Shown: piece after piece, positions 27,161-59,450 of the stretch | Numbering within the stretch: the stretch's first letter is position 1 | Layout: the number at the start of each line of letters is the position of its first letter | Program-made: the position numbers and the translations under genes | Origin: Puccinia triticina | Taxonomy: Eukaryota; Basidiomycota; Pucciniomycetes; Pucciniales; Pucciniaceae | DNA length: 64,000 nucleotides | Assembly (NCBI RefSeq): GCF_026914185.1 | Contig: NC_070562.1 | Location: forward strand, 5,456,001-5,520,000 | Direction of reading: 5' to 3' | The notes under the pieces: generated by a model | What the model saw: only the letters and a program-made list of their open reading frames with translations | What the model was told of the DNA's origin: nothing | Databases searched by the model: none

Positions 27161-27169
27161 CTCTCGCGC

Positions 27170-27276
27170 GCCCGGCTAGCTCAGTTGGTAGAGCATTCGA
27201 CTCTTACGGAGTTCGTAACAACCCCTTTGGGGCGGATGGCATCGAATTGTCGTGGGTTCGAGCCCCACGTTGGGCG
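27170..27276 (+). tRNA. tRNA-Lys (anticodon CTT) with 34-nt intron
   Basis: Acceptor GCCCGGC (27170-27176) pairs with GTTGGGC (27269-27275); the discriminator base is G. D arm GCTCAGTTGGTAGAGC, anticodon stem TTCGA/TCGAA with loop CTCTTA, so the anticodon is CTT (27203-27205). T arm GTGGGTTCGAGCCCCAC. The intron lies at 27207-27240, directly after position 37 (the canonical site). A T run (27280-27284) follows as Pol III terminator. No CCA is encoded, as in nuclear tRNA genes. Confidence 0.95.
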
Positions 27277-27279
27277 CTC

Positions 27280-27284
27280 TTTTT
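27280..27284 (+). terminator. Pol III T-run terminator of tRNA-Lys
   Basis: Five consecutive T residues begin 4 nt after the discriminator base of the tRNA. Confidence 0.75.
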
Positions 27285-28370: not shown

Positions 28371-31300
28371 CTAGACGGCCAACGCCTCGATGATCTGACG
28401 GCGGGCCCAAGAAGACGTAAGCGGCGTGAAAGCAAGAGAGGGAGGGGGGAGGGGTGGACGGACCAAGCAGACACACAGGCGGGCGATCTTGAGGTCGTAT
28501 TCGCGCCCGGCGCCGCCGTTGGCGAGGTGGGAGGAGAGGTGGCTGGGGTGGGCGAGATGGTCGAGGCCGGCGGGCGGGCCGGCGCCGAGGTCGTGGTGCC
28601 CGTCGTCCATCTCGTCCCCGAAGCAGTTGTGCAGCAGCAGGCCCGAGAAGCCCAGCGTGCTGAGCACGGAGATGAAGTCCGACGACTCCAGCCCGTCGGT
28701 CAGGCGCGCGAGGAACTGCGAGCCTTTCACGCGCGGATGGTGGCTGCATTTGCAGTCATACTCAGTCACCGTCTTCAAGGCTGCTGGATTGGTAGTGGAA
28801 ACTCCCACACAAAGAACTCACGGGAACATGACCGCTTGGCAGGCGTTCAACAACTGGGTGTTTTCCGAAGTGCGCATGATTTCCTGGACTCTAGGCGCGA
28901 GCTCGGTTTGGCTGGGGCGGGGGGCACGCGAGACAGGGCGGACACGATGAGCGACGAGCGGGGGAGCAAGAGGGAGGGAGAGAAGACGTACACGAGGAGC
29001 ATGATGTGGGGGACGACGTCGCGATGGACGAGCTCGGCGAGGATGTTGTAGAGGAAGACGAGCTCGGCCTCGTCGTCGGCGGAGGAGATCATGGTGGTGA
29101 AGACGGCGACGACGAGGAGGGCGGTTTCGTGGTCGGACATGCGGAGCTGGTTGATGATGAAGCCGTAGGACACGGCGAGGTCGGCGCCGTCCAGGCCGTT
29201 CCGGTCCACATGTGCGAGCGCGAAGAGCTGGGGGAGCTTGGCGGTGCGGACGGCGATGGGGAGGAGGACGACGAAGTAGGGCAGGGCCTCGGGCGTCAGC
29301 CGGCCCGGCGCCGCGCCGCCGCCGCCCTCGTGCGAAGCCCGGCTCGTCGCCTGGACCAGCAGCAGCTCCAGGAACTCCTCGGCATCCTGCGCGATCTGCG
29401 CATGCCGCAAGCCCTTGATCATCGAGCTTGCCAGCGCGAAGCCGAAGTAGATCGCCCCGTCGGCCACATATCCCGCCTCCCCGTTGTCGAACCGCAGCCC
29501 ACACACCTCCTCGATCTGGCCCATCACCTCCACCGTCCCGTCGTCGCGCGAGTCGAGCAGGAACTGCGAGAGGCGCTGGTTGCCGAGGATCTCGGACTGG
29601 CAGAAGTCGTGGACGGCCGAGCGGGTCAGCTTCAATGCGGCCGCATAGATCGCCGGGTCCTCGAGCTGGAGCAGCGTGACACCGGTCCAGAAGGATGCCG
29701 AGCGATAGGGCGAGTTCGATGCCACTCCGGCCAGGACTTTGGCGCCGCAGGAGATGATCGACGTCGCTAGTGCGCGGTCGATTCCCGATGGAAGACCGAG
29801 GGCGGGCTTGAGGGCCGAGAGGACTTGGAACAGCAGGTCGTCATCCACCTCCTCCGTCAGGAGATATCCAAGAACCACAAAGGCGCGTGGTTGCAAGGCC
29901 GGATTGGCTTGGAAACACGTCGATGTCACCAAGCTAGCCCAGCGAGACCTCCACCGGTTAATAGTATCTACCATCGCATAACAAAAATCAGCCAAGAATC
30001 CCAAGACAGAGATGGTTTGTAGGTTACCTATAGCGGGGGAAGCGACCTTGACAGCCTCGATCAAGAGCTGGACGATGGACTCGAGCGCGACAGGGGAGAT
30101 CGGCTCGCGGAAGCCGAAGTCGTCCTCGGTATACCTGAGCGCGAGGTCGTTAGGGTAGAGGCCGAAGAGGGCCTGGGTGGCGGGCAAGCCGAGGCGCTTA
30201 ATGATGGCGTAGAGCGCCGAGGCCTCGTGGTTGGGCCCCTGAAGCGAGCAGAGACAGGTGAGCGTGTTGATGACGATCGCGTAGATCGCCGACCGCTGGC
30301 TCGCCAGCCCCGTCCCCACTAGCATCGTCACGATGTGCAGGATGTCCGGCAGGTACAGCTGTGCTTGGATGTGCGCCGAAAACGAGATGCTCATCTCCAT
30401 CCGCACCAACGCCGTGATCTCCGGCCATTCCGGACTGTCGGAAATCATCGCCACCGGCTGCGCCGTCGTCCGTCCGATCGCCTGCACAACAAACACCACC
30501 TCTCAACCGTCAACAAAAACACACACCATCCCTCCCCAGGAGAAAAACCGATGGTGACCCACCCTTCGCAAGCGATGGAGCAGTTTGCCTTGCAGATTGA
30601 TGCAGTTCCCCGACACCGCGATCTCACAGACCTCGGTGAACCGGGCCGAGTTAGAGCCATGAGTGATTGCGGACATCGCGAGCTCCTCGATGATCAGGGG
30701 GAGGAGGGATTCCTGGCGGGCCAAGGAGGGCCATATGCGGCCGTGCAAAAGGCCTTGCAGCTACCCACACCCACACGAAAAAGGTCAGTCATTTCAAACG
30801 GGCAAACAGGGGGCGGGGGAGGAGAGGCGTACGTCTTGTTGACACAGGGTGAGTTCGATCAAGCGGCGCAAGATATTCTTGACGCGGTTGCGGGCATACT
30901 CGAATTCCTCGCGGGGGCAGACGAGACAGTTGCTGAGGTTCTGGAGCCAGGACTTGACGGCATGGGCGTAGACGGCGACCTCGGAGGCCGAGGCGGTGGG
31001 CAGGGTGATGAAGAACTCGTCGAGGAAGGGGAAGGTGGCCGAGGGCACGGCGCGGGCCAGACGGTCGCTGATGTCCGAGATGAACGCCAAGCCTAGCCGC
31101 GGGATATACCCCCCTTTTGAGACACCAATCGTCAGCTTCAGCCGCCACAGGGAGCGAAGAGGAAGAAAGGAGATACCTTGGAACGGAATGACGTCCTCGA
31201 TCTTGTCGATCCGCAAGGCGCGCGTCAGCCCCTGCAGAAAGCTGAGTGCAGCCATCCTGATCAGCGAGTCCGAGCTACACAGATTGAAGATGGCCCCGTT

Positions 31301-34300
31301 GAGGAGCGAGCCGTAGATAGTAGCGGGGGTGAGGCTGCGGGGGCGGAAGTCGAAGTTCTGTGGGGTCGACAGCAGATCGGCCTGCGTGTTCGCCAATGTC
31401 TGAAAGAGAGAGAGACACAGATGAGAAACAGTCCGTAGGAAGAAGGCGGATGATGGGCTTACCTCAATGATCCGGTCGGTGTTGACACTGACGAACTTCA
31501 TGGTGACGTTGGATCCGTACTGTTTGATGATGAAGCCGGGGTCAAGATGGACGTTAGAGGGCGGCAAGCGCTGCATCTCCTCGATATCCTTGAGTCTGAT
31601 CACGTCGTTGAGGGTGCACTTGGCGTCGGCCAGCAGCTCCAGCCGTTTAGACTAACCACGGAGCCCCACTTCAGCTGCTACATCAGCGGAGGGCGGGGGA
31701 AAGGGGGTGCTCACGGATCGGATGAGCAGGGTCTTGGAGCCGATGTGCAGGACGACGGGTATCTGCATCTGGTACTGCTGGAGATGGGTGACGTGGCTGA
31801 TGACGACCCGCTTATCATGGAACATGTTCCCTGCATAACCGAGCCACCCTCAGAATCTTTCGCGGGAACAACAAGGAGCGCATTCTCTTACACGAGCTTG
31901 CAGGGAGGACCTGCTCGTAGTTGGGCAGACAGATGGCGAGCTCGTCGAGCGTGCTGACGGCGCGGACGAGGTTGGTCCATCTGCGCTCCTGCTTCTCCGC
32001 TGCACACACACCAAAAGTCACGTCAGAAGAATTTGAGGGGCGGTCAGAAGAGGGGGGAGGAGAGGGGGACAGACTAGCGCCGAGCTTGCGGATGTATCGT
32101 CGGAAGATAGCGTTGGCGTTGTAGACCCAGATCTGGGCGAGATGGAGGGCAGGGAGGGCGGGCGAGGCGTCGATGAGCTGGCGGAACCAGGGCAGCGAGA
32201 TCTCGTTGGCGAAGGTGAACCCGGTGCAGTCGAGGAACAGGGCGAAGGGCCCGTCGATCGCGTCCACAGCCTATACACACACACATTATCAGCCAGGACA
32301 AGAAACCGGGAGGGCAGGGGGAGGGGACTCACTTGGAGGATGTAGAGGTAGAACGACTCGAGGTCGCACATCTCGGCTTTGAGCCGACTGGTGAGGAAGA
32401 CGAACGTGGGCATAGTCTGCAGCTATACGACCACAAACAGGGGTGAGAGACGGCGGGGCAGACGGCTTGGAGAAAAGCGCATACTCTAGAGCGGGGGGCC
32501 TCGAAGAAGAGGGCCTGCCAGATGCGCGGATCGGGCGGCCTATTGAGCTCGTACTTGGCCAGGAAGGCGTGGTACTCGGGGCCGTCGAGGTGGGAGAGAG
32601 GGAGGTCGGGGTCGGCGTTCGCGGGGGGGCCGATGTCCTGGAGGGTCTGGACGACCTCGGCCCAGATCTCGTGGCCCAGAGTGGGCGTCAGCCGTTCGCT
32701 GCCGTCGTGCCAATGCTTGAACTCCATCGGCCGCACGCTCTTCAGCTCCGCCCCCAGCTTCTCCTGGTTCTCGTACAGGAACCGGTGCAGCACGTACCGG
32801 TCCGCCGCGTCTAAGGGCACCGGCGCCAGCTCGTCTTGCAGCTCCGTCCCTTCCTCCGCGACCATCCTGGGCTCGTCGATCGACTGCTTCCCATCCCCCC
32901 AAAAATTAGCATTCTTCTTCCGCGGGTTCCCCCAATAAGAAAAGGGATGCTTACGGAGATGTCCTTCAAGAAGCGGGTCATCGGGTAGACGTTCTTGGCC
33001 ATGAAGGGGTTAAGGGGCTTCATAGCGGGTTCGCGCGCGGAGAAGCGGATATTGTTGGAGAGGGCCTGGAGGACCTTGGTGATCATGACGAGGCTGCGGC
33101 GTATCTCGCGGGTGTCGTTAGGGAGGTCGAGGTCGATGACCTCGGGGGAGACGATGGCGGGGTTAATGAAGCGGAGGAAGATGAAGCCGCCGATAGACGT
33201 GAACACGCTCTCGGGGTATTTCTCCTGGACGGTGGTGGCGATGTGGTGGCAGATCTCGCGGATCGCGCAGGGCAGCTTCTTCCACGACACCGCAATCACG
33301 TTCAGGAACGCCTCCGTCACTTGCTCCAGGTTCCGCGCCGCCTCGTCGTCGTCCGCACTCGCCCGATGCGGGTCGAAGTCCACCGAGAACTCCGACGGCT
33401 TGTTGGCCAGGCCCACCAGCAGGTTCGACAGCGTGTTCCGCAGATAGTCGTACCCCTGGGCCCGGGCGAAGATGGTGAGGAGCCGGGTGGTGAACGAGTT
33501 CCCTCGGAAGACTGTCGACTCGTGGTCTGTGTGCATCCAACTCTCATCAGCCACATGAATACAGAGATCCCGAGTACGGGATTGGACTTGCCTGTGACGG
33601 CGACTTCTCGCTCGATGGAGGCCTTGAGGAACTTGATGACCCCTTTGCGATGGTCGAAGATATTGAGGATGACCTCCGTCATTTCCTCGAAGTCGGCGGA
33701 TCCGCAGACCTTGCAGATGGCGAGGGCGAGGGTGAGGTCGGGCCGGGTGATCATCTATCGCGCACACATGAGCCCACATCAACACCCCAGGCAGGCTTAT
33801 ACCACAACAGAGATTGGAAAAGAGAAGAGCGCACGTCGACGATCTTGTCCAAGCCGGAGGGGCGCACAGGCTTGACGAGGTCCGGCAGCAGATGGCCGCC
33901 CTCCTTGACGACCTCCCAGAGGATCTGGATATTGGCCTGCTTGATGCGGTTGTCGGGGTGATGGAACATGTTGACGAAGTAGCGGAAGGCGGGGTCGATG
34001 TTGGCGGCCATGAGCTTGACGAGACAGTGCATGGTCTGCTCGCGGAAGCCGGCCAGCTCGACGATCTCCCGCGTGATCGAGGCCAGCTCCCGTTGCAAGG
34101 CCGCCGCGTGCTCCGGCGTCCCCCCGCCCCCGCCCTGCTCCCCATCATACATCATCAGTTCTCTGCCCCCAGCCGCCCTCTCGAGCGAGAAGTCACGCAC
34201 CATGGTTCCGCCGCCCGCCGCCATCTTCCCTTTGCGACTCCGGACCGCAACAGCCTACACAACAGATCCCGCAGAAGCTTTCCTCCTCAATACACCCGCT

Positions 34301-36416
34301 CTCGCCCAGGTGAGGATAGAATACACGTACTTCTAGCTTGGTGACCTCAGTGAGCAAGAACGAGAGATAATCGTAATGGCGACTGAACAGGCGAACATGG
34401 ACGACCTCGTTGTTAGCAGTGTGGTTGCCGCGGAGGAGCGCGTGTCTGGGCACGAGCTTGAGCCGGTCGTAGAACGCGGCCAGGGCCTTGAGACACGCGA
34501 TGCTGAGGTCCCTATTCGCGCGCTGTCGACTAGCTTCCTCGGCCGAGATACACGAGACCTGAGATCCAAAAACAAGCGTCAGAGCGAGTACGGGTGATGG
34601 GCAGAGGGGCGGGTTATACCATGTTGACGCTGGTGGCCCAGGCGAGGAAGTAGTCGATCATCTGGTTCTTGAGCACAGTGCTCGTCACCAGCGGCGCCGC
34701 CCTCTCCTTATTACAGGCGACGATGACCTCAGCGAGCTGGGCCATCTTGTACTTGATGCGGGTAGCGATGGGGCCGAAGTCGGAGCCGAGGCAGCCGAGC
34801 CTGTTGGTGTATCTGGTGAAGTCGATGAGCAGGGCGGCGACGCGCTCGGCGACGGGCTCGGCGAGGGGCTCGACGATGCGCTCGAAGAAGAGGCGCAGCA
34901 TCGAGATGGCCTGCTCGATGAAGTGGCTGAACGGGCTCTGCGGCTTGGCGCGCTCGTGCTCGAAGAAGTGGGCGACGATGGACTTGAGGTGTTTGAGCAG
35001 GATGGGGAACAGGGCGGTGTGGAGCTCGGTGCCCAGGGCGTCTTTGACGCCCTCGCGCATCCGCAGGTCGTCGGCGACGAGCAGGTCCACCATCTCCTGT
35101 GATCTCCCCACACATCCGTCACACTCATCAGTCTCGGGGGTAGGGCGGAGGGGGAGGGAGACGACGCACCTGGATGTACCGGTCCACGTTCCGGGCCCGG
35201 TCGGGCAGCGCATAGAACCGGTCGTGGAGCAGGTCCGGGGGGATGAAGTGGTCGAGCGGGGGCGGGCGGGGTTTGGGATGCGAGGGGTCGTGGAGGGAGG
35301 CGATGGAGGTGAGGAGGCCGGAGATGCTGATCCAGGCGTTTGTGTTTTCCTGCATCTCGTATCCCAGCAAATGAGCCCACAAGAGAGAGTATCAAGCAGA
35401 GTGTGTGTGAGAGAGAGAAGAGACGGACCAGGACGCCTTCGCCAGAGATGGCGCCGAGGGCCGGGGCACAGTCGTACATGCCGGCGTCGCCGGAGGAGTC
35501 CTCGAAGGGGCGATGGCCGACGAGGGAGGAGAGGAGCTTCCAGCGGCGGAGGGCCTCGTCCCAGAGGGGATCGATGATGGGCGAGTTGGAGGCGATGGTG
35601 CGCATGACGAGCTTGGCCCGCTTAGCCTGGGCCACGCGACCTGCACACACAAAGAACCGTACACACGCGTCAGCACAGTGTTGGTTTTCGGGAGGAGGGG
35701 GAGGAGGGCTGACCGCCGAGCCCCTTGCCGTCGTCCGGCAGGCCCTGCAAGGTCGCCGACAGCTGGGCGGCCGACAGACTCGCGTCGAGGCCGCAGAGAC
35801 GCAGGACGGGGGGGTGCTTCTCGAAGACGCTGATGAGCTCCTTGGAGCAGCGCAGGAGGAGGGCCAGGTTGTATTGGTCGACGGTGCAGAGGCCGAGCGG
35901 GACGGCGAGGCGGAGGAGGTGGCCGAAGACGAGCCAGTCGTGGGCGTGGGACTCGCTGGCGAACGGAAACCCCGGCTGTCTCGGCCCCGCGGATCAGCAG
36001 CTTCCTTTCGGCAGGGGCAGAGGGGACATCAAACGTACGCTGTGGCCCCGCTCGCTCCACTCCACCGCCTCCTTGAACCGGTCCAGATACGCCTTGAGCA
36101 GCTGCAGCACCTCGCGCTCTTCCTCGCGGAAGACCCAGGTCTCGAGGAGCGCCTTGAGCACGGCGATCCCGACGATCGCGCGGGCCTGTCTGAGCCCGAG
36201 CGGGAGCAGCTCGGCCCCCGGTCTGGGCGAGGAGGAGGGCTGGTGGTAGGCCCGCAGGACGGTCATCGCCGCTTGGCGCACCGGGCGTGGGTTGCGGTTG
36301 TTCAGCAGCAGCGTCGTCAGATACACAAACATCTCCAGGTCGTCCGGGTCGATGTCGTGGCCCGAGGCGAGCCGCGAGTTGAGCTCGTGCGCAGACCGGC
36401 CCGTGTGTTGTTGTTG

Positions 36417-36448
<32 letters not shown>

Positions 36449-38507
36449 GGGGGTGGGGGTGGCGGGCCGAGGGGGGCACGAAGAAGGCCAGCGTGGTGTC
36501 CTGGGTCCACAGGTTGAGCAGCGCCCGGACCAGCTCCGTCTTCTGGCCGCTCTCGTCGCCTCCGGTGATGAGCTTGGAGTTGGAGCGCATGAGGATGTGG
36601 AACTGGTTGGTCTCGAGCACTGCGCTCATGAAGACGTGTCTCAGGGAGGAGGCGATGGCGGGGTAGAGCTCTTTGAGCTTGACGTTCCAGTTCGCCATGT
36701 CGTCCTCGTCCTCCGACGACCGATCCTCTGGGTGAGGGTGTGGGGAGGAGGGGGAGGGGGGCGAGGAGCGGGAGGAGGAGGAGGAGGAGGAGCGGGGCGG
36801 GATCTCGGGGTCGCTGGCCAGCTTGTGGCAGGCCTGGATGAAGGCGATCTGGAAGGGCACGAAGCTCGTCCGGGACAGACACTTCTCGAGCAGCGTGGTG
36901 TCGACGAAGTGGCGGTCGAGCTTGCAGAGCGCGGCGAGGGCCTCGGACATGAGCGGGATCTCGACGACGCCCTCGGAGTTGGTGAACGGCTTGGAGGGGT
37001 CGAGCAGGCGCGAGTTGAGGTCGCCGACGAGGTCCAAGGCCAGCAGCCGCAGGCCGGGGCCCTCGGCGGTCATCTTGGGCGAGAAGGTGGCCGCCTTGCA
37101 GAGGTCCACACAGCATGCCGTGGCCACGTCGGTCATCTTGACCGCCTTGAGATGTTTGCGCAGACTCTCGATGAACGCGGCCTTGCGGGCGGTGACTTGG
37201 GAGCGGTTGCGGTCGCCGACGGTGATCTTGAGGACGATGTCGGGGCAGACGGCGAGCAGCATGGCCATCATCGGCCAGGTGTATGTGCGCTTCTTGCCGT
37301 TCTCGGACAGGCCGTGGGCGACGTCGAAGAGCACGTCTGGGGCGCCCTCGAGCCGGCCGTTGGAGCGGACCAGGCTGGCATACTCGTTCGGATAGGTTTC
37401 GATCCAGTTCCAGATCGAGCGTCTGAGGGCGAGGGCGATGTCGGCCTGGGCGGCGCGCTTGAGGTGGACGAACTGGGCGGAGAGCTCGCGGACGATCGAG
37501 CTGAGCCGGTGGCGGTTGAGCGAGCAGAACTCGAGCAGCCGGGTCTCTGAGCGGTCCGGGAACTCTTCGGGGCCGGACCAGTAGGCGATCCGGTTCTTGA
37601 TCTTGCCGAGGACGATGGTCCAGTTGGATGCGGAGACGAAGAAGCAGATCTTGGAGACCTGGGTGAGGATGTCGCCCATGAGCGAGGGCACGATCGGCTT
37701 CTCGTCGGGCTCTCTTCCGCCGCCGCCGCCGCCACCACCGAATATTGAATTTTGTTGTTGCTGCTGCTGCTGCTGCTGTTGCTGTGGGTTTCCGAGGGTG
37801 GCTTTCCGGTGTGCTTCGTAGTTGGCGGATGGCTGGGAGGTGCTGCCGATGGGACCGAGTGCGGCGCCGGCGTCTTCGAAGCGCTGGTGTTCCTTGAGGA
37901 AGAAGCTGATGGTGGCGACGAGCTGTTTGGCGAGGTTGTCGTCGAGCTGGGGCGGGTCGACCCAGTCGGTGAGCAAGGGCTTGGGTGGCTGGTGGGGGTG
38001 GTGCTCGTGGTTGGGTGGCTGGTGGGTGGCCTGGAGTGCGACCTGCTCGCGGTGCCAGGCCCAGTGGTATGACATGCAGTAGCAGAGGATCTTGATGACG
38101 AAGAGCTGTGTGCGCAGATGGTCGACGAGGCCGGTCTGCTCGTCGGAGGTGAAGGGCTGTTCGCGGAAGGGTGTGAGTCAGAGCCAGTCGGCAGGTGTAG
38201 TTAGTTAGTTAGTGCAGCTCACGTGGGAGGGCGAGTCGAGTTCCTGGAGCAGCTTCTGGATGACGCAGGGCAGGCGCTGGCAGCACATCTCGAAGAGCGC
38301 GCTGCATGACTGGCGGATGAGCTCGTCGGTCTCGAGCGGGCTGAGGTGGGGGTCTGCCTGGTTGGACAGCTTGGCCATGATCTTGTTGACGAGGGCATCG
38401 ATGAGCTTGTCTTCGCTGGGCGTGCTGTTTGGGTTTGGGCTCGCTGTCGAGTGGATCGTTCCGGCTGGGGTGTGCAGGGAGGGGTGGTGGTGGTGGTGGT
38501 GGGCCAT
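28371..38507 (-). CDS. IRA1: Neurofibromin/Ira-type Ras GTPase-activating protein
   Basis: Negative regulator of Ras: stimulates GTP hydrolysis through an arginine finger. Multi-exon minus-strand gene, several thousand residues. Start at 38507 (MAHHHH), exon 1 to about 38222. A long exon (about 38160-36030) carries the N-terminal helical region with the family stretches WNWIETYPNEY and NPSKPF, and two CAG/CAA-coded poly-Gln tracts (about 37755-37785 and 36405-36435). The RasGAP domain lies at about 34200-32950: arginine finger in VFRGNSFTTRLL (near 33500) and the signature FLRFINPAIVSPE (near 33160). A CRAL-TRIO (Sec14-like) segment follows (MPTFVFLTSRLKAE, GPFALFLDCTGFTF, IWVYNANAIF; 32415-32085) and then a PH-like part (31.9-31.4 kb). 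The C-terminal helical region ends at 28371. Not all exon borders were fixed. Order RasGAP-Sec14-PH is diagnostic of neurofibromin/Ira. The symbol denotes homology only; orthology to yeast IRA1 versus IRA2 is not resolved. Confidence 0.92.
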
Positions 38508-39468
38508 CTTCGTCGTGGTTGCGGGTGGGATTCAGAAGAAAGCGACGCCCAAAGCAAAGACCCCCCCACACACAGCACTCTCCACTCTGCGAAAACCGAT
38601 ACGCACTCAGCTGGGAATGTTGCACAAAAATCACCCCCAGACAAGCACCCTGCCCCTTCTGATCCACCAGAGACCAACCCAGCTTCGCCACTGAAACCTT
38701 GGGAAATCAGGCCAGGAGTCTGGTTCCAGAAGCCCATGACGGCTACAAGAGGTCTAGCCGCGTAAGAAATCGACTCTGGATGGGCCTGATCTACTTGACC
38801 TTTCTCGAGCACAAAATTGCATCATCCAACTAAACCCATACAAATAATAGTGTGATATTGGTTAGATCAGTGTTTATATTTTTGGCCTGAAATTAGGAAG
38901 TGATCAGAGGGAGAATATCTTTCAACTTCAACACCTCATACCAAGTTGGTGACCAAACCTCGCTAGCTCCAGAGAGATATCAGAATAAGTCTCAGCTCAC
39001 ATAGTCACATTGTATGAGCATATTGGCCTCCTTTGGTGTTTGGACTGCTCTTCTGCATCTTTGACACCGGTAAGCCTGTACTAAGAGTCCAACTGAAAAA
39101 AGCTCTTTCCCAACTTGTCCAGCAAGAATTCTCATGTGATAAAACCTCATGGGCACAGGGTATTTAACTCAAAGATATTCGAGAATTATAATCCATCCCA
39201 AATCTCTGGGGTTTGAGTTGCATTCTGAAAAGTGTTGAAAGGAGAATGAGTATTTGCAAATCACTAAAAGATAGAAGCAATTCATTTCTGTGACCAATCT
39301 CAGCGGCGTTGAGTTCACGTTTATTTTGCAGCATGGCCAATAATCTAGCTAGCTCCCTCTAACTTAAGCTCACATGCCTTCTGTTTGGGCTTATTGTGTT
39401 GGGTGTTGGCTAGCGTAGCACAGGCCGCAGATAAAAGTTGTTAGTGTAGTCTTCCTGCAAGCTGCAAA
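38508..39468. other. Upstream region of the RasGAP gene, no other gene
   Basis: G+C falls sharply after about 38.75 kb. This stretch should contain the promoter of the RasGAP gene near 38.5-38.8 kb. The rest is A+T-rich with no frame or repeat that I can name. Confidence 0.4.
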
Positions 39469-41728: not shown

Positions 41729-42179
41729 GGTGATATGTACTTCGGGGAGGCCTGAGCTGGGCAGGAAGAAATGCTGAATGAGTGGTGGCAGTAGTCTACG
41801 TTGGGTATTTACATTACATTTTGTTATCCACACTATTTGTGTAACATAACTAACTGCGTTGTTCACCGCAACCCGTTATGTTACAAGTAACAGGCCATTT
41901 AAGTGGCATATGGTTAGCCTAACAGGTCTTTTTCCGGCGCTGTTACGCTGTGTTATCACTTGGATAACACAATATTAGGTGGCTTTTTGTAATACTGTTT
42001 TTTTCTTTTTTTGATTTTGGCATTTGTAGAGGAAAAAACCTTGATGTTTTTTTTCTGGAATTCTTAGAGGGGAAACCCTTGATTTTTCTTTTGTGATTTT
42101 TGGAGATTTGTAGGGGAAACCCTTGAATTTTTGTTTTGTGATTCCAAGGCATGTTCAAATTAAAACTCTAGCTCAGGTT

Positions 42180-44320
42180 GGAATCATAAAATACATTTTA
42201 TGAGGTGCGTTTAACGTTTGGGAGATATGCAAGTTAATCTCCCACCTCCTTGCTCTGTGCACATCTCAGGGCCAGTAAACAATCCACATAAATATGTACA
42301 GGTATTGGGTAATAGCAACCAGATGATTAAGGTTTTGGGTTGCAGAGACAGATTCACATGCAGATTGGCTCAATTTTCACTGTTTCATGAGGCTTTTCAA
42401 TAATCACTTGTATCAAAAGAGGTACATGGTCATATGTAAAATCATTGGCCAAAATTTAATTCAAATGATGTAAAAAATTAAAAGAGATACAAAACAAGAA
42501 GGCAAAGGCAAAGGCAAAGGCTGGTCAATCAAAAGAATTTCAGCTGGCAAACTCTGAAAATACAAGAAAACCACACCACTTTCCACATAAAAGATGTTCC
42601 TGCTCAAAAAACTCCTACTCGGATTTACTATCCTCAACAGAACAGTTGGACTCTGCAAGCCCAGCATGGAAGGAAAAGTCTTCCTGGATCGTACCCCCAC
42701 TGGAAAACTGATCACCAATAACAGTATGTCACTTCAACTGCTCCCATTCAAATAGTTCACTTCTTCAAACTGCCATAAACCAGCAGGCACACACTTTGAA
42801 GCCCCATTCTATGTAGCTTAGTCCTCTCACCAAGACCTTGTCCAGCGGGGTTTTGCACTCTGATCGGAGGAAGACTGACATGCCCAAGCAATTGACCCCG
42901 ATTACACGAGCACATCTGATACCCGGAGTCTATCTGCTAACAAGTGGTGGTCATCACTTACATTTTACAGGTTCTCTAAGATGTGGCTCCATTCATGAAG
43001 GTGTGATTCATTCAGCCTTAAATTTTGCCTACTAGATTAGAGAACTGATCAACACTATAAACTAAGGCATCCTGAAGAAACTATACGACCCTTGCTGTGA
43101 GTGGCTCTGCGCCCCTCAAAATGGCATTGGTGCATGTTCTGATCCTCCTTCTTCTGTTCCAAGCCTCCCATGAAAAACTGATCACAGGTCCCAGGAAGAC
43201 AGTCAGCCATCCCACATTTTGGCAAGACTACTACACCACCGCTGGGTGCTTTGACGAGTACCAGAAAGTCCTGTGGTTTGGAGTCGTCCAAAAGGCGCTG
43301 TCCTCCAGCACTACTGAATCCAGCCAAAGCTCTCATCACAACAGATTCAACTCCTTGCTGGCAATCTCAAACGATTCCCAGCGGAAAGAGATCTGGAAGT
43401 TTGTGGGGAAACATCACCTCACCCTCCAAGCCCTCCCATCTGGACCTGGGTCAGAGGGCGCAACTGTCTCAGCTGCAGCTCCAAATCTACAGGGTAAGCT
43501 GCTCCATCTCTCCTGCTTCTGATAAATCTGCTGACAATCATTCCAAAAAAAAATAATGCCAAATTAAAAGGCACACACAAAGAAAACTGCTTTGTGAACT
43601 TGATTCTGATGTCCAAAGCTGACTGGAGGAAGACCAAGGAGTTCGTGGTCAGTCTGGAGTATCCCGAGCTCTGCAAGCTGCAGAAGATCGCCCTGCAGTG
43701 GCGAGAAGTCAAGCAGAACGTCACCACGGGGGCGCTGAGGAAGCTGTTTGGGGACATGAACGCCCTCCTGGCCGGGTTCGACGACGGCAAGAAGGCGCAG
43801 TTCTGGGCTGCCGAGGGCGAAAAAAAAGCACCCAAGATCTCCTTCGGGACGGCCGAGAAGGCCGCCCTCTTGGGCCCTTATCTGCGCGGCCGCGCGCCGG
43901 AGGCCCAGGAAGAGGCCAGGAGGACGATGGAGAGGGTGTTTCCGGACGCCTTTAGCCATCGCCCCCTCTGGACCGAAGAGTTCTACAGGAACGCCGTCGC
44001 CTTGATCGCTGTCTCTGCACCGGAGGAAGAGGAGTTCGTGTGGACGTGCATCAAGGTCCTTGTCAAGGCCCATGTCCATCAACAGAAACTCACAACCATC
44101 CTCTCCAATCTGGTTTACAAGATCATCAAATAGCCGGATCTCTGGAAGGCCCCTGTCTCCACATCCACCCTTCCGATCAGATGGAACCTTTTTTTTTTTT
44201 CTTCCTCTTGGTGATATTTTCCATATCCAGGTCTTTCTCATCCCCTTCCTGGAATAATCTTTCCTCATTTACTGGCCTTGGAATCCAGACCTCCTGAGCG
44301 CGATTATTCAGGAAAACACA
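42180..44320 (+). repeat. Segmental duplication, unit 1
   Basis: Matches 45430-47820 in the same orientation. Upstream non-coding identity is obvious (TTTTATGAGGTGC, GGGAG..ATGCAAG, ATCTCCCAC.TCCTTG, CATCTCAGGG, TTTCACTGTTTCAT.AGGCT, CAATAATCACTTGT.TCAAAAGAGGTA). The genes inside are related and the 3' flanks share GATCAGATGGAAC followed by a T run and CTCCTGAG. Confidence 0.75.
43121..44133 (+). CDS. Putative secreted protein, G+C-rich paralogue
   Basis: Unrecognised family. Two exons, 43121-43493 and 43571-44133; the 77-nt GT-AG intron is phase 1 and joins to 311 residues. The start was chosen for its signal peptide MALVHVLILLLLFQASHEK; an in-frame ATG at 43097 would weaken it. Motifs shared with the paralogue at 46531: HP.FW.DY, W/FFGVV.KALSS, NRFNSLLAI.NDSQ, KISFG..EK, FPDAFSHRPLWTEEF and a C-terminal helix W.CIK.LV.A..HQQKL. 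Third codon positions in exon 2 are nearly all G or C, unlike the A+T-rich DNA around it and unlike the paralogue. No transmembrane segment after the signal. Candidate effector by context only. Confidence 0.7.
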
Positions 44321-45430
44321 CTGCATATCTAGCAGGGCAGCATGGGTTAGAGTAAGACTGCATGAACACAACCAATGAACAGCCACTTCAAAGAAAGAAC
44401 TGGCGCAAGTGCTTGAAGTTGATATGCAGGGTTCTCCAGCCAATCTGCCATTGTAGCCCCAATTGTAATCACATAATTGCATTTGAGACATAGGCACTGG
44501 TAATTCAAGCTTGGTTGACTTGCCCCTTTGGTTGATTAAGCCCTTTGAGGAAGGCTGGAGGAACACCACAAGTCTCCCTCATGTTCCCACATGTCAACTG
44601 CTGACAGACCCAGTTATTTGTGCAGAGTGCTGTTTGCAAAGAACAGAGAAATAAGAACAAAAGAGGTGCTGTGAAGTTTACCAAGCCACTGGAACACACC
44701 TTCCTGGGGCACAGCAAGATTGGACAGGAGGATTCAACTGCAGCCTGGAAATCTGCATGGCAAAGACAATGTCCTCTTGGTCACTAAAACTGCATATTCC
44801 CGGCCGGGAGGAAGGCTCTAGGCTAGCAGGGCTGGTGCAGGCTTGAAAGACAACAGTGCTTCCCAGATCTGAGTTGCAGTTTTGATGGCTGGGAGGGCAC
44901 CTTCCTGGCCATCAAGACTGTTTGTATCCAGGGAATGGTCCCAAGATCCTCACCTGACCTGTCAAAATCCACTTTGGTTGAGCCAAAGTAAGCATCTTGA
45001 ACAGGGGGAGTTGGATGTCCTTTTCTCCCAAAGGGACTCCCATCAGCTGCAATGTTGATACAGCTTTGCTGCAAAAAGCTCAATGCAGCACTGAATGCAG
45101 CAGGTGATGAATGATCTGCGCTTCTCTTCAGCGTGGAGTAAAGCCACAAATGCTTCACTTTTTTTTCAGCTCTAGACCCAGTTGGCATGAGGGATGTGGT
45201 TGTGTTTCTCCCATTTTAGATGAAAAAATGTGCACAGTTACTTTGCAGTGAAGGTTTCCAAAGAAAGGCTTGAATAAGGTTTGCTTAACACTAAAATCTT
45301 TCCTTAAGCTCTTGCCCGTCAGCTGGAGGTATTTGAATGAGTGTCTCTTGCAGCATAATGGTTTGCAATTTTATGCAATTGAATGATTGGAGGAATATGG
45401 AGAACATATGCGTGTGCAAGTTGAAACTCA
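44134..45430. other. Spacer between the duplicated units, no supported gene
   Basis: Only short minus-strand frames of up to 130 residues without start context or family motifs. The first ~190 bp belong to the duplicated 3' flank. The rest shows no repeat I can name. Confidence 0.45.
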
Positions 45431-45702
45431 ATCTGGTGTTGGAATAATACAATAAATTTTATGAGGTGCTTTTTGGGAGCTACGCAAGATACATAATCTC
45501 CCACATCCTTGATCTTTGCACGTCTCAGGGTCATGAATATGTAAAGGTATTGGCTGATAGCAAACAGAAGATTATAGTTTTGGTTTGCAGGGGTGGATTC
45601 ACATGCATATTAGTTCAAGTTTCACTGTTTCATCAGGCTATGCAATAATCACTTGTCTCAAAAGAGGTAACATCATTGGCCAAAACTTGATTTATAAAGA
45701 TA

Positions 45703-45900
45703 GGGTGTTCAAATTTGACTGGCATAAAATCATAACACCATAAAATCATAAAATTCTAAGCTGAAAAAAATATGTTGCACCCAAGCACTCAAATTAGAGC
45801 AACATTTCTAGAATGGTACATATGAAATCATCACTTGAAAGTTTTATAATTTTATGATTTTATGCATTGAAAATTTTATGATTTCAACTTTGAACACCCT
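45703..45900. mobile_element. Short inverted-repeat element with CATAAAATCATAAAA motif
   Basis: Ends AGGGTGTTCAAA and TTTGAACACCCT. The interior is packed with CATAAAATCATAAAA and TTTTATGATTTTATG in opposite orientations. It is absent from the matching site of duplication unit 1 (near 42470), where the flanks GGCCAAAA and GTAAAAAATTAAAAGAGATAC are close together. The target duplication is not clear. Non-coding. Confidence 0.7.
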
Positions 45901-46530
45901 CTCTGTAAAAAATTAAAAGAGATACACAACATCCAACCTGGTGGCATGCTAAAAAGAAGTACCTACTGTTTTTCCAGCCAAGAATTTTGATTATAAAGGC
46001 CCTGTAGTTTGAACAATCTGAACAGGCCCATTCTCCTCATCATCTGCATTGATTGAAAAAAATCTAGTTAACATATCCTTCCCACAGCCAGGTTATTTAC
46101 AACAATTTTGGTTGGCTTGCAGCTGTTGCATTGCTATAGTTCTCCAACACACCCAGCCTCAAGCCCAAGATATCTGTTCAAGAGAAGCCCCACTGCTGAA
46201 ATAACTGAAATTTGCAATGAGCACCAACAATTTTAAAGGATCCAACCTAGTTTAGATGGTATGACATTCTATTTATATGGTCTTTATGTTGAATGGCAAA
46301 AATTTGATTTCTTGATTTTTCACACTGAATTGATGCCACAAGAAGAAAATTTGGGATATTTATCAATTAAAAAATGCAAAAAAGCAGAATGTATGTCACT
46401 TTATTCATTTTGTGACTTTGTAAACCAAAAGAAGTGATTCCTGATTCATCAACTCCAACACCCATGGGCTCAGTTGGTTTCAAGGACTTTTATGATCCTT
46501 CTTGTGAGTGAATCTGTGTGCCTAAGATAC

Positions 46531-47551
46531 ATGAAGCATGGTCTGATTATCTTGTTTACAGATTCTCACAAAAATTTGATGAAAGTAACATCCCAAGAAA
46601 GTATCAAACATCCCAACTTTTGGGAAGACTACTTTGATCTATCCCAATTCTATGATGAACATCAAAAAATGTTGTTTTTTGGTGTTGTTAAAAAGGCACT
46701 TTCCTCCATTGAAGAAACACCTGAAGATTCTCAAAACAGATTCAATTCCATGCTGGCAATTTTAAATGATTCCCAAAAGCAACAAATGTGGCAATTTGTG
46801 GAGAAGCACAGGCAAACTCTCAAATCATTACCATCTCAGCCTGAGGACAAGGAAATTATCATGGATGAAGAAGATTCAAGTCAACTCCTGCACAGTAAGT
46901 TATTTCAAACCCATTTGATTCTATTCTTCTGATAATGCAACCAAAAATTCATCTGCTGACAGGTTTGTTTGAATACTACAAAATTATACAAACAAATGGA
47001 AAGATAAAATGAAAAGGAGCTGGATTTTGAAATTAGTTTGTATCTTGAATTCTGATTGGAGGAAGGAGAGAAAATGGATTCTGGGCCTGAATTATTCTGA
47101 ATTGAAATTACTTATGAATATTATAGCACCATGGAATAGCATTGAAACAGTAGAACAAAACCACCATGAATTGATTGCTTTGCTGGCACTTTTGAATGAT
47201 TTTAAAAAGGAGCAATTTTGGTATTTTGGAGCACTTAGAAAAGACACAAAGATATCATTTGGAGTGAAGGAAAAGGAAGTTTACTTGAAAAATTATCTGA
47301 ATGAATTGCCTGATCTAAATGAGAAGGGAGAGTTCATATCAACCATGGATAAACTTTTTCCACAATCCTTCAATCATCAGCCACTTTTAAGTAAAGAATT
47401 CATTAAAAATGTCCTTGCCTTGCTCTCAGTTTCAAGCAGTGAAGAAGAGAAAAGAATCTGGAAATGCATCAAAATTTTGATTGAGGCCCAGTACCATCAA
47501 CAAAAATTTACAACAAAACTTTCCAAACTTTTTCACAAGTTAAATCAATGA
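46531..47551 (+). CDS. Putative secreted protein paralogue, A+T-rich
   Basis: Paralogue of the gene at 43121. Exons 46531-46894 and 47004-47551; the 109-nt intron is again phase 1. The product is 303 residues. Shared motifs: HPNFWEDYF, MLFFGVVKKALSS, NRFNSMLAILNDSQ, KISFGVKEKE, FPQSFNHQPLLSKEF and IWKCIKILIEAQYHQQKF. The start was chosen by alignment; the signal region (MKHGLIILFTDSHK) is shorter than in the paralogue by about six residues and may not work. An upstream in-frame ATG at 46474 adds MVSRTFMILLVSES and could supply a different hydrophobic leader. Codon use is A/T-ending, opposite to the paralogue. Confidence 0.65.
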
Positions 47552-48001
47552 ATCAGGTTTGTGATTTCTAACTGGAACTTCTTTTTACTAGAGTGATGAT
47601 TTCATCTTCCATTAATCTCTGTTACTTACATGGAATTCACTTTTCATCACTTTTTCCATTGATCAGATGGAACTTCTCTTTTTTATTTGTCTCATTTACA
47701 ATTTTTGTGGATTTCCTTCCCTAGAATTGATATCTGCTTCTTTCTGTCTCTTTTGTTTTCCCACTGCGTTTTAGAATTTAAATCTCCTGAGACAATTTGT
47801 TCAGAAAGGGTAACACAAAGATCATATCCCATTTTCTTAAATCCACAGAATCCTAGACCCCTAGATCTAAGTTTTGGAGTGTTTATTTCTCTGAAAATGT
47901 GACAAAAAATTCACATTCATCTCACATCAGACGCTTGTCATACACCAGCACTAAAGATAAGCAGGAATAGATAGATGGATCTACAATATGGCCGCAAGTG
48001 G

Positions 48002-55509: not shown

Positions 55510-58500
55510 TCACTCACCATGGGTATTTCTCTTGCGAGAATTATCATCATTCGACGAAATCCAACAGCCTGGCGTACTTCGAGTCGTCAGATGCGAAGTA
55601 GAACTTGAATTCGGTTTAGTTTTTGATGAGTATTTTATCGCCAGAAACTTCAAGGATCGCCTGATTGTGCAGTGTCCTACCGGCTTAGTCAAGAAATCGG
55701 CTGGATTTTCATTTGATCGTATATATTCCAGCATGATCAATTTTGATTTAACATGATTGCGAATGAAATGTAGTCTAATGTCCATGTGTTTTGTTCGAAA
55801 ACCATTTTGAGACGTTTCACTATTCGCAAGATCAATTGCCGCTTTGTTGTCGACCGCTATTCTGATATGCGTAGATTTTTCAAGCACTCCGATTTCATTG
55901 ACTAAACTAGTTATCCAGACTACTTCTCTTGTCAAATCGGCTAGCGCCTTGTATTCTGCTTCCGCCGAAGACAGTGACACCATATCTTGCTTACTTGATT
56001 TCCAGGAGAGCAAGTGACTACCAACCATCACGACATATCCTGATATCGAGCGGCGTGTCATTGGACAGTTGCCCCAATCAGCATCGACAAAGGCTTTGAG
56101 TTCTGAGTTCTTCTCCTTGTTGAAAGTTAGACCCATTTCTCTAGTGCCGGAGACATAACGAAAAACTTGAACGGCTGCATTATAGTGTGTTAGACCCGGA
56201 TTGTTGAGAAACTGTGACAATGAGCTAACTGCATAAGAAATATCTGGTCTAGTTAGTAAACTCAAGTAGTTTAAGGATCCAATCATTGATTGATAATTTA
56301 CTCCAAGTCGCTTAAATGCCGCTTGATCTTCTTCTGTCGCCTTGTTCAATTGTACTCTAGGATTCAATGGACAAGAAGCTGAGTATTCATTTTGAAGATC
56401 ATATTCGACTAGCTTTCGTTCGATATATTGACTTTGATTTATCGTGAGTGAGTCTTCATTTCGAGTCAACTTCATTCCAAGTAAGAATTCTGCTTCTCCA
56501 AGGTATTTGATTGCAAACTCCTTTTCAATCTCGGCTTTGAAGACTAGAGGATCGTGACTGATTATTACTAAATCGTCAACGTGAACAAAAATCCAAGTCA
56601 TCGGCTTTCCAGGTTTATCTGATCGCCAGAATACGCATGGATCTGAAATCACTGTTTTGAAATCAATTGAAGTAAGAAAGGTTGATAGTCGATTATGTTG
56701 AAATTATGCAAACTCGCATGATTACGGGATGCTATGCATGAATTATGCATATACTCCGGGGTGCATGCATTAGGTTAATGCTCTGTCGATCGATCAATTG
56801 TCATCGACTTCGGACTCAGAGAATTTTCACAACCAACTTCTTTTTCCCCGACAAATCTTCTTCCCCTTCTTTTCTCATCACCGCCGACAACCTTCCTTCC
56901 CTTCTTAATTCTTATCTCGTTACTTAAAACTCTATCAGCTCGATTACCGAACAAAATTACTCGAAGAACATTCTTCGTTGTTAACCAATCAATCAATTCG
57001 ATTCAAATCAAAAACCCGATCTCAACTGTCTTTGATCTCTGACATTCAGGAGGAGCTAGATTCAGCTTCTGGGCAGGTAGTCGATCTATTTCATTTATCT
57101 AACTTAAGTTATTTACAAATTGTTGACGTATTTATTCTAATCCTTTGCCAGGCTGTTTCGTCGTGAATCTCCTTGTGTCTTATATCGTCGTTGTTGTGGT
57201 TGCGTTGCAATTTCTTCTTTTTGTTTTGATTCCAATCTTTGAGGTATTTTTTATTCTTTCGCATCTTCAAGATATCATTAGCGGTCCTAACGTTGTTGTT
57301 ATCCTTTTCAAGTGCATTACTTTTATTGAGTTCTTATTATATAACTGTTTCAAGAAAGTAATCGTTCTATCATTGTTACAGATTATACCAAACTAGAGGT
57401 GCTTGTTGAAGTCCATACACTGCCTTCTTCAATTCAAACACGGTGTTAGATAGTCCGTTGTAACCGGGAGGCGGAAGAAGAGTAACCTTATCTTCTAGCG
57501 GACATGTGAGAAAAGCGTTTCGCACGTCTAGCTGATGAATCTTCATCCCATTATTCACGGCAAATGACAGTAGAAGTCGCAGAGAGCAAGGCTTCCCCGT
57601 CGGAGCATATTTGGCAAAGAAATCAAAGCCAAACGTTTGTCTAAAACCTTGTGCACAAATTTGAGCTTTGAATTCTGTGACTTCATTGTTTGATCCAAGC
57701 TTTTTTCGATAAGCCCACGTCGAAGGAATAGGTGAATCATCGCTATTCATTTGACGCTCCACCCAAGCTCCGTGATTCTTCATGTTTTCATACTCCTTTG
57801 CTTCAGCTTCTATCCAGTTTGTTGTCTCTGAGCTCTTCATTGCTTGATTATGAGTCTTCGGAGCAACAGAGATTAAAGCCGTTCTTCTTGAATAATTAAG
57901 AATGTTAGATTTATCAATATCACTAGAGATGATTTTGTCGACTTCAACTGGCGGATCTTCAGTTTCTTCCTCTTCTTCTTCCACTTTGATCTCCTTATCA
58001 TCTTCTACTGGTAGTTGACTTTCAGCAAAAGGTGTTTCTAATGAATTAATGAAAATAGGAAGATTATTTGATAATGAGAGATTGTCAAGGCTTTTGTGAA
58101 GAGCAGAGCAAACCGGAAAAACGTCCTCTTGAAAGTAGGCGTGTTTAACGTTCATGATTCTTTTATCGTCGAGTCGAACCACCTTGTAGGTTGAGTAGTC
58201 GTTTGCATAACCAATTAACACTCCTTCCCATGAAATTGCATCAAATTTTCTTTCTCGATTTGCATCAGGTTTAACTGACCACACCTTACAACCAAAGGGT
58301 TGAAAGAAATTTATATTTGGTCGTGTTTTAAACATTAATTCAATGGGTGAGGTGCGACTCCTTGACAGTGACGGTAAGCAATTTGTGATAGCGCAAGCTG
58401 TCTTCACCGCTTCTGCCCACCATTCTGGTGCCAGATTTGATTGAAGCATCATACATCGGGTCATGTTGATGATTGTTTGATTCGCACGTTCAGCGATTCC

Positions 58501-59450
58501 GTTTTGTTGTGGAGTATACGGAGGCGAAACGTTGTGCTGAACACCATAAGAATCTAGTAGATCGGATAAACTCTTGTTACAAAACTCTCCACCGCCGTCT
58601 GTTATCAACTTTTTCATTTGATTGCCAGTTTCATTTTCGTGAAGAATTTTGTATTTATTAATTGCGTCGACAGTATCACTCTTCTCCTTGAGAATTTTTA
58701 CACTAATAAAACCAGTATGTTGATCGACAAGAGTAAGAAAATATCTTGCTGAACCATTTGAAGAGGTAACAATCGGTCCGACTAAATCGCCATGAACAAC
58801 CTCAAGCGCAGCCAATGTCTCATCGAAGTGATCCTTAAAACTTTTTTGTGTGAGCTTTCCTTTCATGCACGAGTCGCAGCATTGTTCTTTGATCAAACTT
58901 TCATCGCTAGACAGTACTACTTTGATTCTCTTAGTACTTGCGTGACCTAGACGATTATGCCACTTCGTAAAACCGGAAGGCTCTTTAATAGTATTGATCG
59001 TGACAAAGGCTTGTGGATGAACAGGATAAATGTTGCCATCAATTTTGAATAAATTGTTCGAAAGATCAAGATTGAAAAGTTTTTCATGATCGTTGAGAAT
59101 GACTTCAGCTTTATTACTCTTCAGATCAATTGAAATCTTCTTTTCGAGTAATTTTGAAAAGGATATTAAGTTGCGAGTTAGGTTCGGAACATATAAAGCT
59201 TCGGGTAAAGTTAAGATCTTGCCGTTGGATAACTGAATTGAAGCTGTTCCTTTCTTTGTCGCAACCAATTCGTCTCTAGATTTTCTGATAAAGCAGTCGA
59301 TGTAGAAGAAGAAGACAAAGAGAAATCGTGTTTCTTCATGGCTTCTTTTTGCTTTAGAACAGTCTGCTCGTGGGTTGCTATGTCTCGTAATTTCTCAAGC
59401 AAAGGAAATGTGTCTTTAAGAATCGATTCTTCCGTAACAATTGATTCCAT
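55510..59450 (-). mobile_element. Degenerate Ty1/copia retrotransposon (integrase, RT, RNase H)
   Basis: Minus-strand polyprotein in two main frames. 59268-57376 carries the pre-integrase zinc finger (HNRLGHAS .. CCDSCMKGK), the integrase catalytic triad (VHGDLVGP; TDGGGEF; PQQNGIAERAN) and the start of reverse transcriptase (HQLDVRNAFL, VYGLQQAP). About 56691-55510 carries the rest of RT (active site HVDDLVI) and RNase H (DADWGNCP, SSAEAEYKAL, KTKHMDIR-type end). The gag part is missing except perhaps a 79-residue frame to 59450, out of frame with the main one. A 685-bp solo LTR splits RT. The integrase-before-RT order defines Ty1/copia. Confidence 0.9.
56696..57380. mobile_element. Solo LTR inserted in the copia reverse transcriptase
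   Basis: Starts TGTTGAAATTATGC and ends CATTGTTACA (TG..CA). The 5-bp duplication GATTA is at 56691-56695 and 57381-57385. Without the LTR and one GATTA the RT frame is continuous, so the LTR inserted cleanly and its internal part was lost by LTR-LTR recombination. It has no coding content. Confidence 0.88.

What the first reader, a model, noticed from the sequence alone, without database searches (positions are those of the whole stretch)
42180..47820. Duplicated secreted-protein genes with opposite base composition
Two adjacent paralogues share the phase-1 intron position and recognisably similar promoter and 3' flanks. Yet the coding part of one (43121-44133) is G/C at nearly every third position while the other (46531-47551) is A/T-ending. 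The non-coding flanks of both are A+T-rich, so regional mutation alone cannot explain it. Candidates are GC-biased gene conversion, selection on codon use or expression, or replacement of one coding body by a diverged homologue after the duplication.
Basis: partly seen in the sequence, partly recalled or inferred. Interest (0 to 1): 0.78.

Follow-up and report, generated by a model that had tools for sequence, protein, structure and literature searches.

The report
Last exon turned GC-rich in paralogue
In a small family of secreted-protein-like genes of the wheat leaf rust fungus, most copies favour A and T, but the last exon of two copies has apparently turned richer in G and C on its own in each, changing even the encoded amino acids, which points to a local substitution bias rather than to codon choice.

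Summary
The contrast is real but described too simply. The genome is Puccinia triticina Pt15 haplotype A (exact length match). The genes are old members (42% aa) of a nine-locus family; the closest relative of the second (g2) is on contig 9.

AT-ending codons are the family default (GC3 0.29-0.42), below eight chaperonin-family genes (0.485-0.606). Only last exon E of g1 is strongly GC-ending (0.82); exon D (0.59) is near baseline. Exon E of C2e also shifted (0.57) while its exon D did not (0.35).

The shift is a weak-to-strong (W>S) substitution excess at all codon positions (g1 E 85:5, second positions 21:0; C2e E 74:21) and mostly outside CpG. That argues against codon choice or methylation loss alone; exon D and E trees that agree argue against wholesale replacement in g1. 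Most likely, unproven: local GC-biased conversion or repair centred in exon E. Weakness: the intron next to exon E stays at 0.35 GC, so I say it works like, not that it is, GC-biased conversion.

The parts
42149..42496 (+). g1 upstream element shared with the contig-9 copy and, to 42424, with g2; lies upstream of the real first exon
   Evidence: three places in the genome; p-distance 0.166 / 0.186 / 0.188
42594..42723 (+). g1 exon A: start codon and signal-peptide-like N terminus (by eye)
   Evidence: start of PTTG_09674; five-exon model reproduces 357 of 360 residues; GTATGT donor
42971..43000 (+). g1 exon B (30 nt), placed by the deposited protein
43067..43096 (+). g1 exon C (30 nt), placed by the deposited protein
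   Evidence: GTGAGT donor, CTGAT branch-like site, AAG acceptor; spliced out in PTTG_09674
43164..43493 (+). g1 exon D, GC3 0.587, near the chaperonin baseline in codon endings; CpG o/e still 0.32
43494..43570 (+). g1 intron D-E, phase-1 donor, acceptor as in PTTG_09674; GC 0.351
43571..44133 (+). g1 exon E with stop codon; GC3 0.824, GC4 0.872, CpG o/e 0.82 counted from codon 43621 on
43644..44049 (.). maximum-likelihood GC island inside exon E (0.633 vs 0.441 around it)
   Evidence: 2-lnL support loose (start 42600-43719, end 44001-45219)
45410..45669 (+). g2 upstream element, homologous to 42149-42424
46090..46239 (+). g2 stretch homologous to exon A (first 150 nt); no start codon where the other eight members have one
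46562..46894 (+). g2 exon D, GC3 0.373
   Evidence: acceptor and donor
47051..47551 (+). g2 exon E from the conserved DWRK motif to stop; GC3 0.352, no CpG

Best explanation
Shown: g1 and g2 are old members of a nine-locus P. triticina family of multi-exon genes, eight of which have a start exon with a hydrophobic N terminus. Exons D and E of most members are AT-ending and CpG-poor, below the conserved genes sampled here. In g1, A/T-to-G/C changes accumulated in excess in last exon E, at all three codon positions, so that both codon endings and amino acids changed (G+A+R+P 26.5% against 9-15% in the other members); exon D reached the genome baseline in codon endings. The same is seen, more weakly, in exon E of C2e, with exon D unchanged. 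Inferred: the two shifts are independent, since the relatives of each are AT-ending; and the cause is a fixation or repair bias toward G/C acting over a few hundred bases centred on the last exon. It works like GC-biased gene conversion at a recombination-prone site; I do not file it as a proven case, because the adjacent intron did not follow.
For: Exon-by-exon composition of nine members (D) and eight (E). W>S:S>W of g1 E 85:5 and D 32:6 against six control members pooled 151:75 in E (Fisher 5e-8, indicative only because members share ancestry). Second positions 21:0 against 49:20 in controls (p 0.003). Both transitions (56) and transversions (29); 60 of 85 outside CpG. C2e against the family consensus: E 42:7, D 4:6. 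C2e-unique sites in the trio C2c/C2d/C2e (no outgroup used): exon E 74:21, exon D 14:9, upstream introns 14:16; dS C2d-C2e 0.30 in D and 1.02 in E, C2c-C2d 0.20 and 0.16. A bell-like profile within g1 exon E: GC at positions 1+2 runs 0.40, 0.65, 0.26 along the exon. Chaperonin-family genes do not prefer G/C endings to this degree (GC3 0.485-0.606 per gene, 18 exons 0.408-0.628). Conversion has probably acted in the family: g2 and the contig-9 copy differ by 49/549 upstream of exon D (introns with the exon-A-like stretch) but 52/277 in the promoter.
Against: Non-coding DNA near g1 rose less and unevenly: intron D-E 0.351, beside exon E with GC3 0.824; other introns 0.47, 0.33, 0.52; 3' flank 0.46; the same intron is 0.25-0.30 in seven others and their first 300 bp downstream 0.32-0.43. 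Neutral gBGC should shift introns as much as silent sites. In C2e intron D-E the ratio is 16:10, not distinguishable from exon E (p 0.13). Exon D of g1 keeps CpG o/e 0.32. Tetrad work in plants and fungi found no GC bias (Liu et al. 2018, seen only as cited in PMC6730849), and Zymoseptoria shows little or no gBGC (passages of PMC5844332 and PMC6546377). No polymorphism or recombination data were available here. GC3 of exon E does not track flank GC over eight loci. Consensus polarisation leans to W>S in an AT-rich family (controls about 2:1).
Confidence: 0.42

Rival explanations
1. Selection on codon use, expression or protein composition drove g1 exon E to G/C.
For: The shift is strongest in coding DNA and the adjacent intron lags.
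Against: Second codon positions shifted 21:0; one exon of C2e shifted and not the other; chaperonin-family GC3 is 0.485-0.606 per gene; both G and C endings rose in four-fold codons (G 0.32, C 0.55 vs 0.17 and 0.32 in the first 13 chaperonin exons). No expression data were seen.
Confidence: 0.17
2. Exon E was replaced by recombination with a diverged GC-rich homologue, with the break in the D-E intron.
For: In C2e synonymous distance jumps from 0.30 to 1.02 at that intron and C2e-unique differences rise from 7.5% in upstream introns to 22% in exon E and 26% in the intron itself.
Against: No GC-rich donor was found in the haplotype: the best relatives of C2e exon E are C2c and C2d. For g1, D and E trees agree and branch lengths are alike (0.87 and 0.95). 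Exon D of g1 is shifted too (32:6).
Confidence: 0.13
3. Relief from cytosine methylation: AT-rich members are CpG-depleted by deamination, and g1 exon E escaped like a CpG island.
For: CpG o/e 0-0.36 in the other members' exons against 0.82 in g1 E and 0.75-1.07 in chaperonin-family genes; CpG o/e rises from 0.08 to 1.0 with GC over 388 windows of the window and 13 loci; CG methylation and CpG decay are reported in rusts (passages of PMC8444563 and PMC8063080).
Against: 60 of 85 W>S changes are outside CpG; C2e exon E rose in GC while its CpG o/e stayed at 0.17; g1 exon E (0.82) lies above the baseline, not at it; the C-to-T bias of Puccinia graminis transposons is reported as very weak (passages of PMC4352252).
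Confidence: 0.15
4. Nothing happened to g1 beyond a return to average composition; the AT-ending members are the odd ones.
For: Exon D of g1 matches the chaperonin codon endings and parts of its flanks match the genome mean; the AT-ending members lie well below baseline.
Against: Exon E of g1 is far above the highest chaperonin exon (0.824 vs 0.628 among 18) and second positions shifted 21:0.
Confidence: 0.13

Closest known systems
GC-biased gene conversion in duplicated genes (BMP8A/B, DDX19A/B, TUBG1/2; passages of PMC2720389; histones and HSP70, recalled)
   Same: Local GC rise in part of a paralogue, strong at third positions, set against flanking DNA.
   Different: There the introns of the converted part rise too and the copies stay alike; here the adjacent intron rises little and g1 is 42% identical to its neighbour.
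Base-composition shift in MHC class I exon 3 of birds (passages of PMC3685324)
   Same: Lineage difference in GC3 of one exon in a fast-evolving gene family.
   Different: GC3 differed by about 8 points there, overall GC did not, and significance depended on the model; here GC3 of exon E differs by 47 points and positions 1 and 2 move too.
CpG depletion and AT-richness by methyl-cytosine deamination in the rust Austropuccinia psidii (passages of PMC8063080)
   Same: The AT-ending members show CpG depletion.
   Different: Reported for transposable elements; it does not account for non-CpG W>S changes in g1 and C2e.
P. triticina PTTG_09674 and PTTG_00472
   Same: PTTG_09674 is the g1 gene in isolate BBBD (357 of 360 residues); PTTG_00472 corresponds by eye to C2e exon E.
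   Different: Annotated only as hypothetical proteins.

Membership tests
GC-biased gene conversion footprint | Excess of W>S over S>W substitutions | tested here: met
   g1 E 85:5 and C2e E 42:7 against the consensus, C2e E 74:21 in its trio; controls 151:75
GC-biased gene conversion footprint | Independent of codon position and of amino-acid effect | tested here: met
   second positions 21:0 in g1 E; positions 1, 2, 3 of C2e E 24:8, 15:6, 35:7
GC-biased gene conversion footprint | Adjacent non-coding DNA shifted alike | tested here: not met
   g1 intron D-E 0.351 beside exon E GC3 0.824; other introns mixed; C2e intron 16:10, too few to tell. Hence 'works like', not filed as a member
GC-biased gene conversion footprint | Coincides with a recombination hot spot; W>S alleles at higher frequency | not testable with these tools
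   no population data held
Translational codon selection | Confined to silent sites and to the codons of conserved, well-expressed genes | tested here: not met
   second positions 21:0; chaperonin-family GC3 0.485-0.606; their expression was assumed, not seen
PTTG_09674-like family | Sequence homology in exons D and E | tested here: met
   nine members in D, eight in E
PTTG_09674-like family | Start codon and signal-peptide-like exon A | tested here: inconclusive
   present in eight of nine members, absent as a start in g2; signal peptides judged by eye, no predictor run; exon A of g1 does not align well with the others
TFIIF beta HTH domain (Pfam PF02270) | Profile match over the curated cut-off across the family | tested here: not met
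   one of seven members (g2), 24.8 bits vs cut-off 23; none in PTTG_09674

The most novel reading that the evidence does not exclude
A substitution bias toward G/C that is bounded by an exon: in this rust family the last coding exon, but not the intron beside it, is repeatedly driven to high GC in single copies, rewriting the protein composition as it goes. It could arise if conversion happens only between paralogous exons, which stay alignable while introns do not.
Probability: 0.2. Interest if true: 0.62.

Novelty: new variant of a known kind. Interest (0 to 1): 0.42.

Why it matters
If the bias is conversion-driven, fast amino-acid change in secreted proteins of rusts can come from a neutral process that mimics positive selection, and dN/dS scans of such families would be misled. 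The C2c/C2d/C2e trio gives a young case with an internal control (exon D against exon E of one gene). It also warns that intron pyrimidine tracts can be misread as signal peptides in this family.

Tried and rejected
Antisense overlapping gene (43564-44268, minus): the frame stays open over exon E in 2000 of 2000 synonymous shuffles, so it follows from codon endings. Protein fold: AlphaFold2 on PTTG_09674 aligned with three other rows (g2 exon D and exon E pieces apart, PTTG_00472) gave pLDDT 47.6, mostly helices, not interpreted. Solved structures: none at E 0.1 or better. Other species: two protein searches, with g1 and with a seven-member profile, found one protein each, both of P. triticina; that search reaches only relatives sharing short exact words. 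Regional composition as predictor: four rank correlations over eight loci, p 0.32-0.49. Similarity between the GC-rich blocks near g1 and near C2e: none at the blastn threshold used. Literature: nine searches (terms such as Puccinia + GC3, rust fungi + GC-biased gene conversion, PTTG_09674) listed nothing that I recognised, from titles and starts of abstracts, as describing this shift; only listings were seen there, and passages of ten papers. The table row for P. triticina in PMC5315462 was seen without its column heads and is not used.

Limits: control members are related, so Fisher values are indicative. C4 was left out of exon E counts because no exon E was recognised there; the weak place C4:3091093-3091320 was not added. 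The chaperonin baseline first used 13 exons of five genes; one minus-strand exon was then read on the wrong strand and others were overlooked. On re-check all 18 stop-free listed matches inside held loci were used, eight genes; six further stop-free listed matches lay outside the held loci. One of the eight genes is represented by 99 bases only.
Full report
Identity. The window is contig 5, 5456001-5520000, of a genome of 122,823,596 bases in 18 contigs. That total and contig number equal haplotype A of Puccinia triticina Pt15, GC 46.63% (Table 1 of PMC9927501, passage seen). The first gene (g1) is PTTG_09674 of isolate BBBD.

Family. Protein searches of the genome with g1 and g2 gave nine loci: g1, g2, one on contig 9 (C9), five on contig 2 (C2a at 2.555 Mb, C2b at 2.470 Mb, C2c, C2d and C2e at 5.215-5.249 Mb) and one on contig 4 (C4) where only exon A and exon D were recognised. 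Searches with C2e and C2b added one weak place on contig 4. g2 is 77-83% identical to C9 and 40-51% to g1 in the exons. Trees of exon D, exon E and both join g2 with C9 (support 60, 98 and 100), and split g1, g2 and C9 from the contig-2 members (support 74, 80 and 100; unrooted).

Gene model. It is an intron: a GTGAGT donor, a CTGAT branch-like site and an AG acceptor surround it in g1, g2 and C9, GTAAGT with the same layout in C2b, and less exact signals in the other five. The deposited PTTG_09674 protein skips it and starts at 42594; exons 42594-42723, 42971-43000, 43067-43096, 43164-43493 and 43571-44133 give 357 of its 360 residues. Eight of nine members have an upstream exon with a start codon and a hydrophobic N terminus; g2 keeps the homologous stretch but has no start codon at that place, so g2 may be broken or start elsewhere. 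Intact relatives exist.

Composition. Exon D GC3: g1 0.587, the other eight 0.291-0.388. Exon E GC3: g1 0.824, C2e 0.573, the other six 0.346-0.419. Four-fold GC in exon E: 0.872, 0.576, and 0.241-0.289. CpG o/e in exon E: g1 0.82, the other seven 0-0.29; in exon D g1 0.32, the others 0-0.36. Gly+Ala+Arg+Pro in exon E: g1 0.265, the others 0.093-0.146 (all). Eight chaperonin-family (PF00118) genes of the same genome, 18 exons, have GC3 0.485-0.606 per gene and mean CpG o/e 0.75-1.07. So the AT-ending members lie below these conserved genes, g1 exon D lies near them in codon endings, and g1 exon E lies above them.

Where the shift lies. The maximum-likelihood GC island in 42000-45400 is 43644-44049, inside exon E, but the support interval is wide. 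GC at codon positions 1 and 2 rises and falls along exon E, back to the family level at the C terminus, while the 5' side changes abruptly at the intron. Introns of g1 are uneven: A-B 0.47, B-C 0.33, C-D 0.52, D-E 0.35; the 3' flank is 0.46 and the promoter element 0.35. The locus is thus partly less A+T-rich than that of g2.

Direction. Against a consensus of six AT-ending members, g1 exon E carries 85 W>S and 5 S>W changes, exon D 32 and 6; second positions in E are 21 and 0. Leave-one-out controls in exon E are 25:9, 26:5, 31:19, 35:14, 18:13 and 16:15, pooled 151:75; second positions 49:20. The controls share ancestry, and the consensus itself favours W>S. Of the 85, 56 are transitions and 29 transversions; 25 lie in CpG. 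C2e against the same consensus is 42:7 in exon E and 4:6 in exon D. In the trio C2c/C2d/C2e, changes unique to C2e are 74:21 in exon E, 14:9 in exon D, 16:10 in the D-E intron, 14:16 in the upstream introns and 12:4 in the promoter part; exon E of C2e is unique at 116 of 516 sites against 40 of 530 in upstream introns. C2e-unique sites include changes on the stem to C2c and C2d.

Distances. The promoter elements of g1, g2 and C9 differ by 0.166-0.188 in all three pairs, occur at three places in the genome, and are not more alike between g2 and C9 than with g1. Yet g2 and C9 differ at only 49 of 549 sites in the stretch between promoter and exon D, against 52 of 277 in the promoter; blastn similarity ends at 47614, 63 bases after the stop. 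The body of g2 and C9 was therefore probably homogenised after the promoters split, which is modest evidence of conversion in the family; a later duplication with a replaced promoter is not excluded. In exon E of g1 and g2 silent sites are saturated, so distance cannot date the g1 shift.

Mechanism. Codon selection fails on second positions, on the D/E difference within C2e and on the chaperonin baseline. Methylation relief fails on the non-CpG majority and on C2e, whose CpG o/e stayed at 0.17. Donor replacement is unsupported for g1 (agreeing trees, no donor found); for C2e it remains possible. What remains is a local bias toward G/C in fixation or repair. GC-biased conversion is the best-known such process, but the adjacent intron did not follow, and work in other fungi found little or no such bias (passages of PMC5844332 and PMC6546377; Liu et al. 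2018 seen only as cited). I therefore hold it at 0.42 and file it as something that works like conversion, not as a proven case.

What the protein is. No Pfam family holds for the family: one of seven members reaches the TFIIF beta cut-off, PTTG_09674 none. No solved structure matched. The fold prediction was poor. A role as a secreted protein rests on exon A, read by eye.

Changes made on re-check: exon A now starts at 42594 (was 42593), the chaperonin baseline grew from five to eight genes, the intron values come, and the kind was changed from member to variant because one defining feature of conversion was not met.

Noticed in passing
45703-45900: Insertion of about 200 bp in the g2 upstream region, absent from g1 and C9 in the alignment, with inverted ends (gggtgttcaaa / tttgaacaccct, read): MITE-like.
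   Followed up: partly
44384-44628: Dispersed repeat of about 245 bp in the g1 3' flank; 39 of the 41 listed matches fall in or close to it (329 candidates, 40 scored).
   Followed up: partly
44832-45377: 77% similar to C9:2876326-2876906, upstream of the contig-9 copy: the segment shared by g2 and C9 reaches beyond the promoter.
   Followed up: partly
26000-39000: GC-rich block (0.56-0.67 per kb) with long open frames on both strands; a 1.2-kb piece has partial copies at 82-95% on contigs 15 and 12 and shorter matches on contigs 5 and 12.
   Followed up: partly
L041:2001-5000: Another GC-rich block (0.62-0.72) about 1.5 kb downstream of C2e, unrelated in sequence to the window block. Both GC-shifted members lie near such a block; ten other fetched loci (L034-L040, L042, L045, L046) have no 500-bp window at 0.58 or more.
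   Followed up: partly
46562-47551: Exon D and part of exon E are similar to each other (for g2 34-37% over 35-50 residues), suggesting an internal repeat.
   Followed up: no
55510-59394: Retrotransposon frames on the minus strand (RVT_2, integrase); Copia-type is my label.
   Followed up: no
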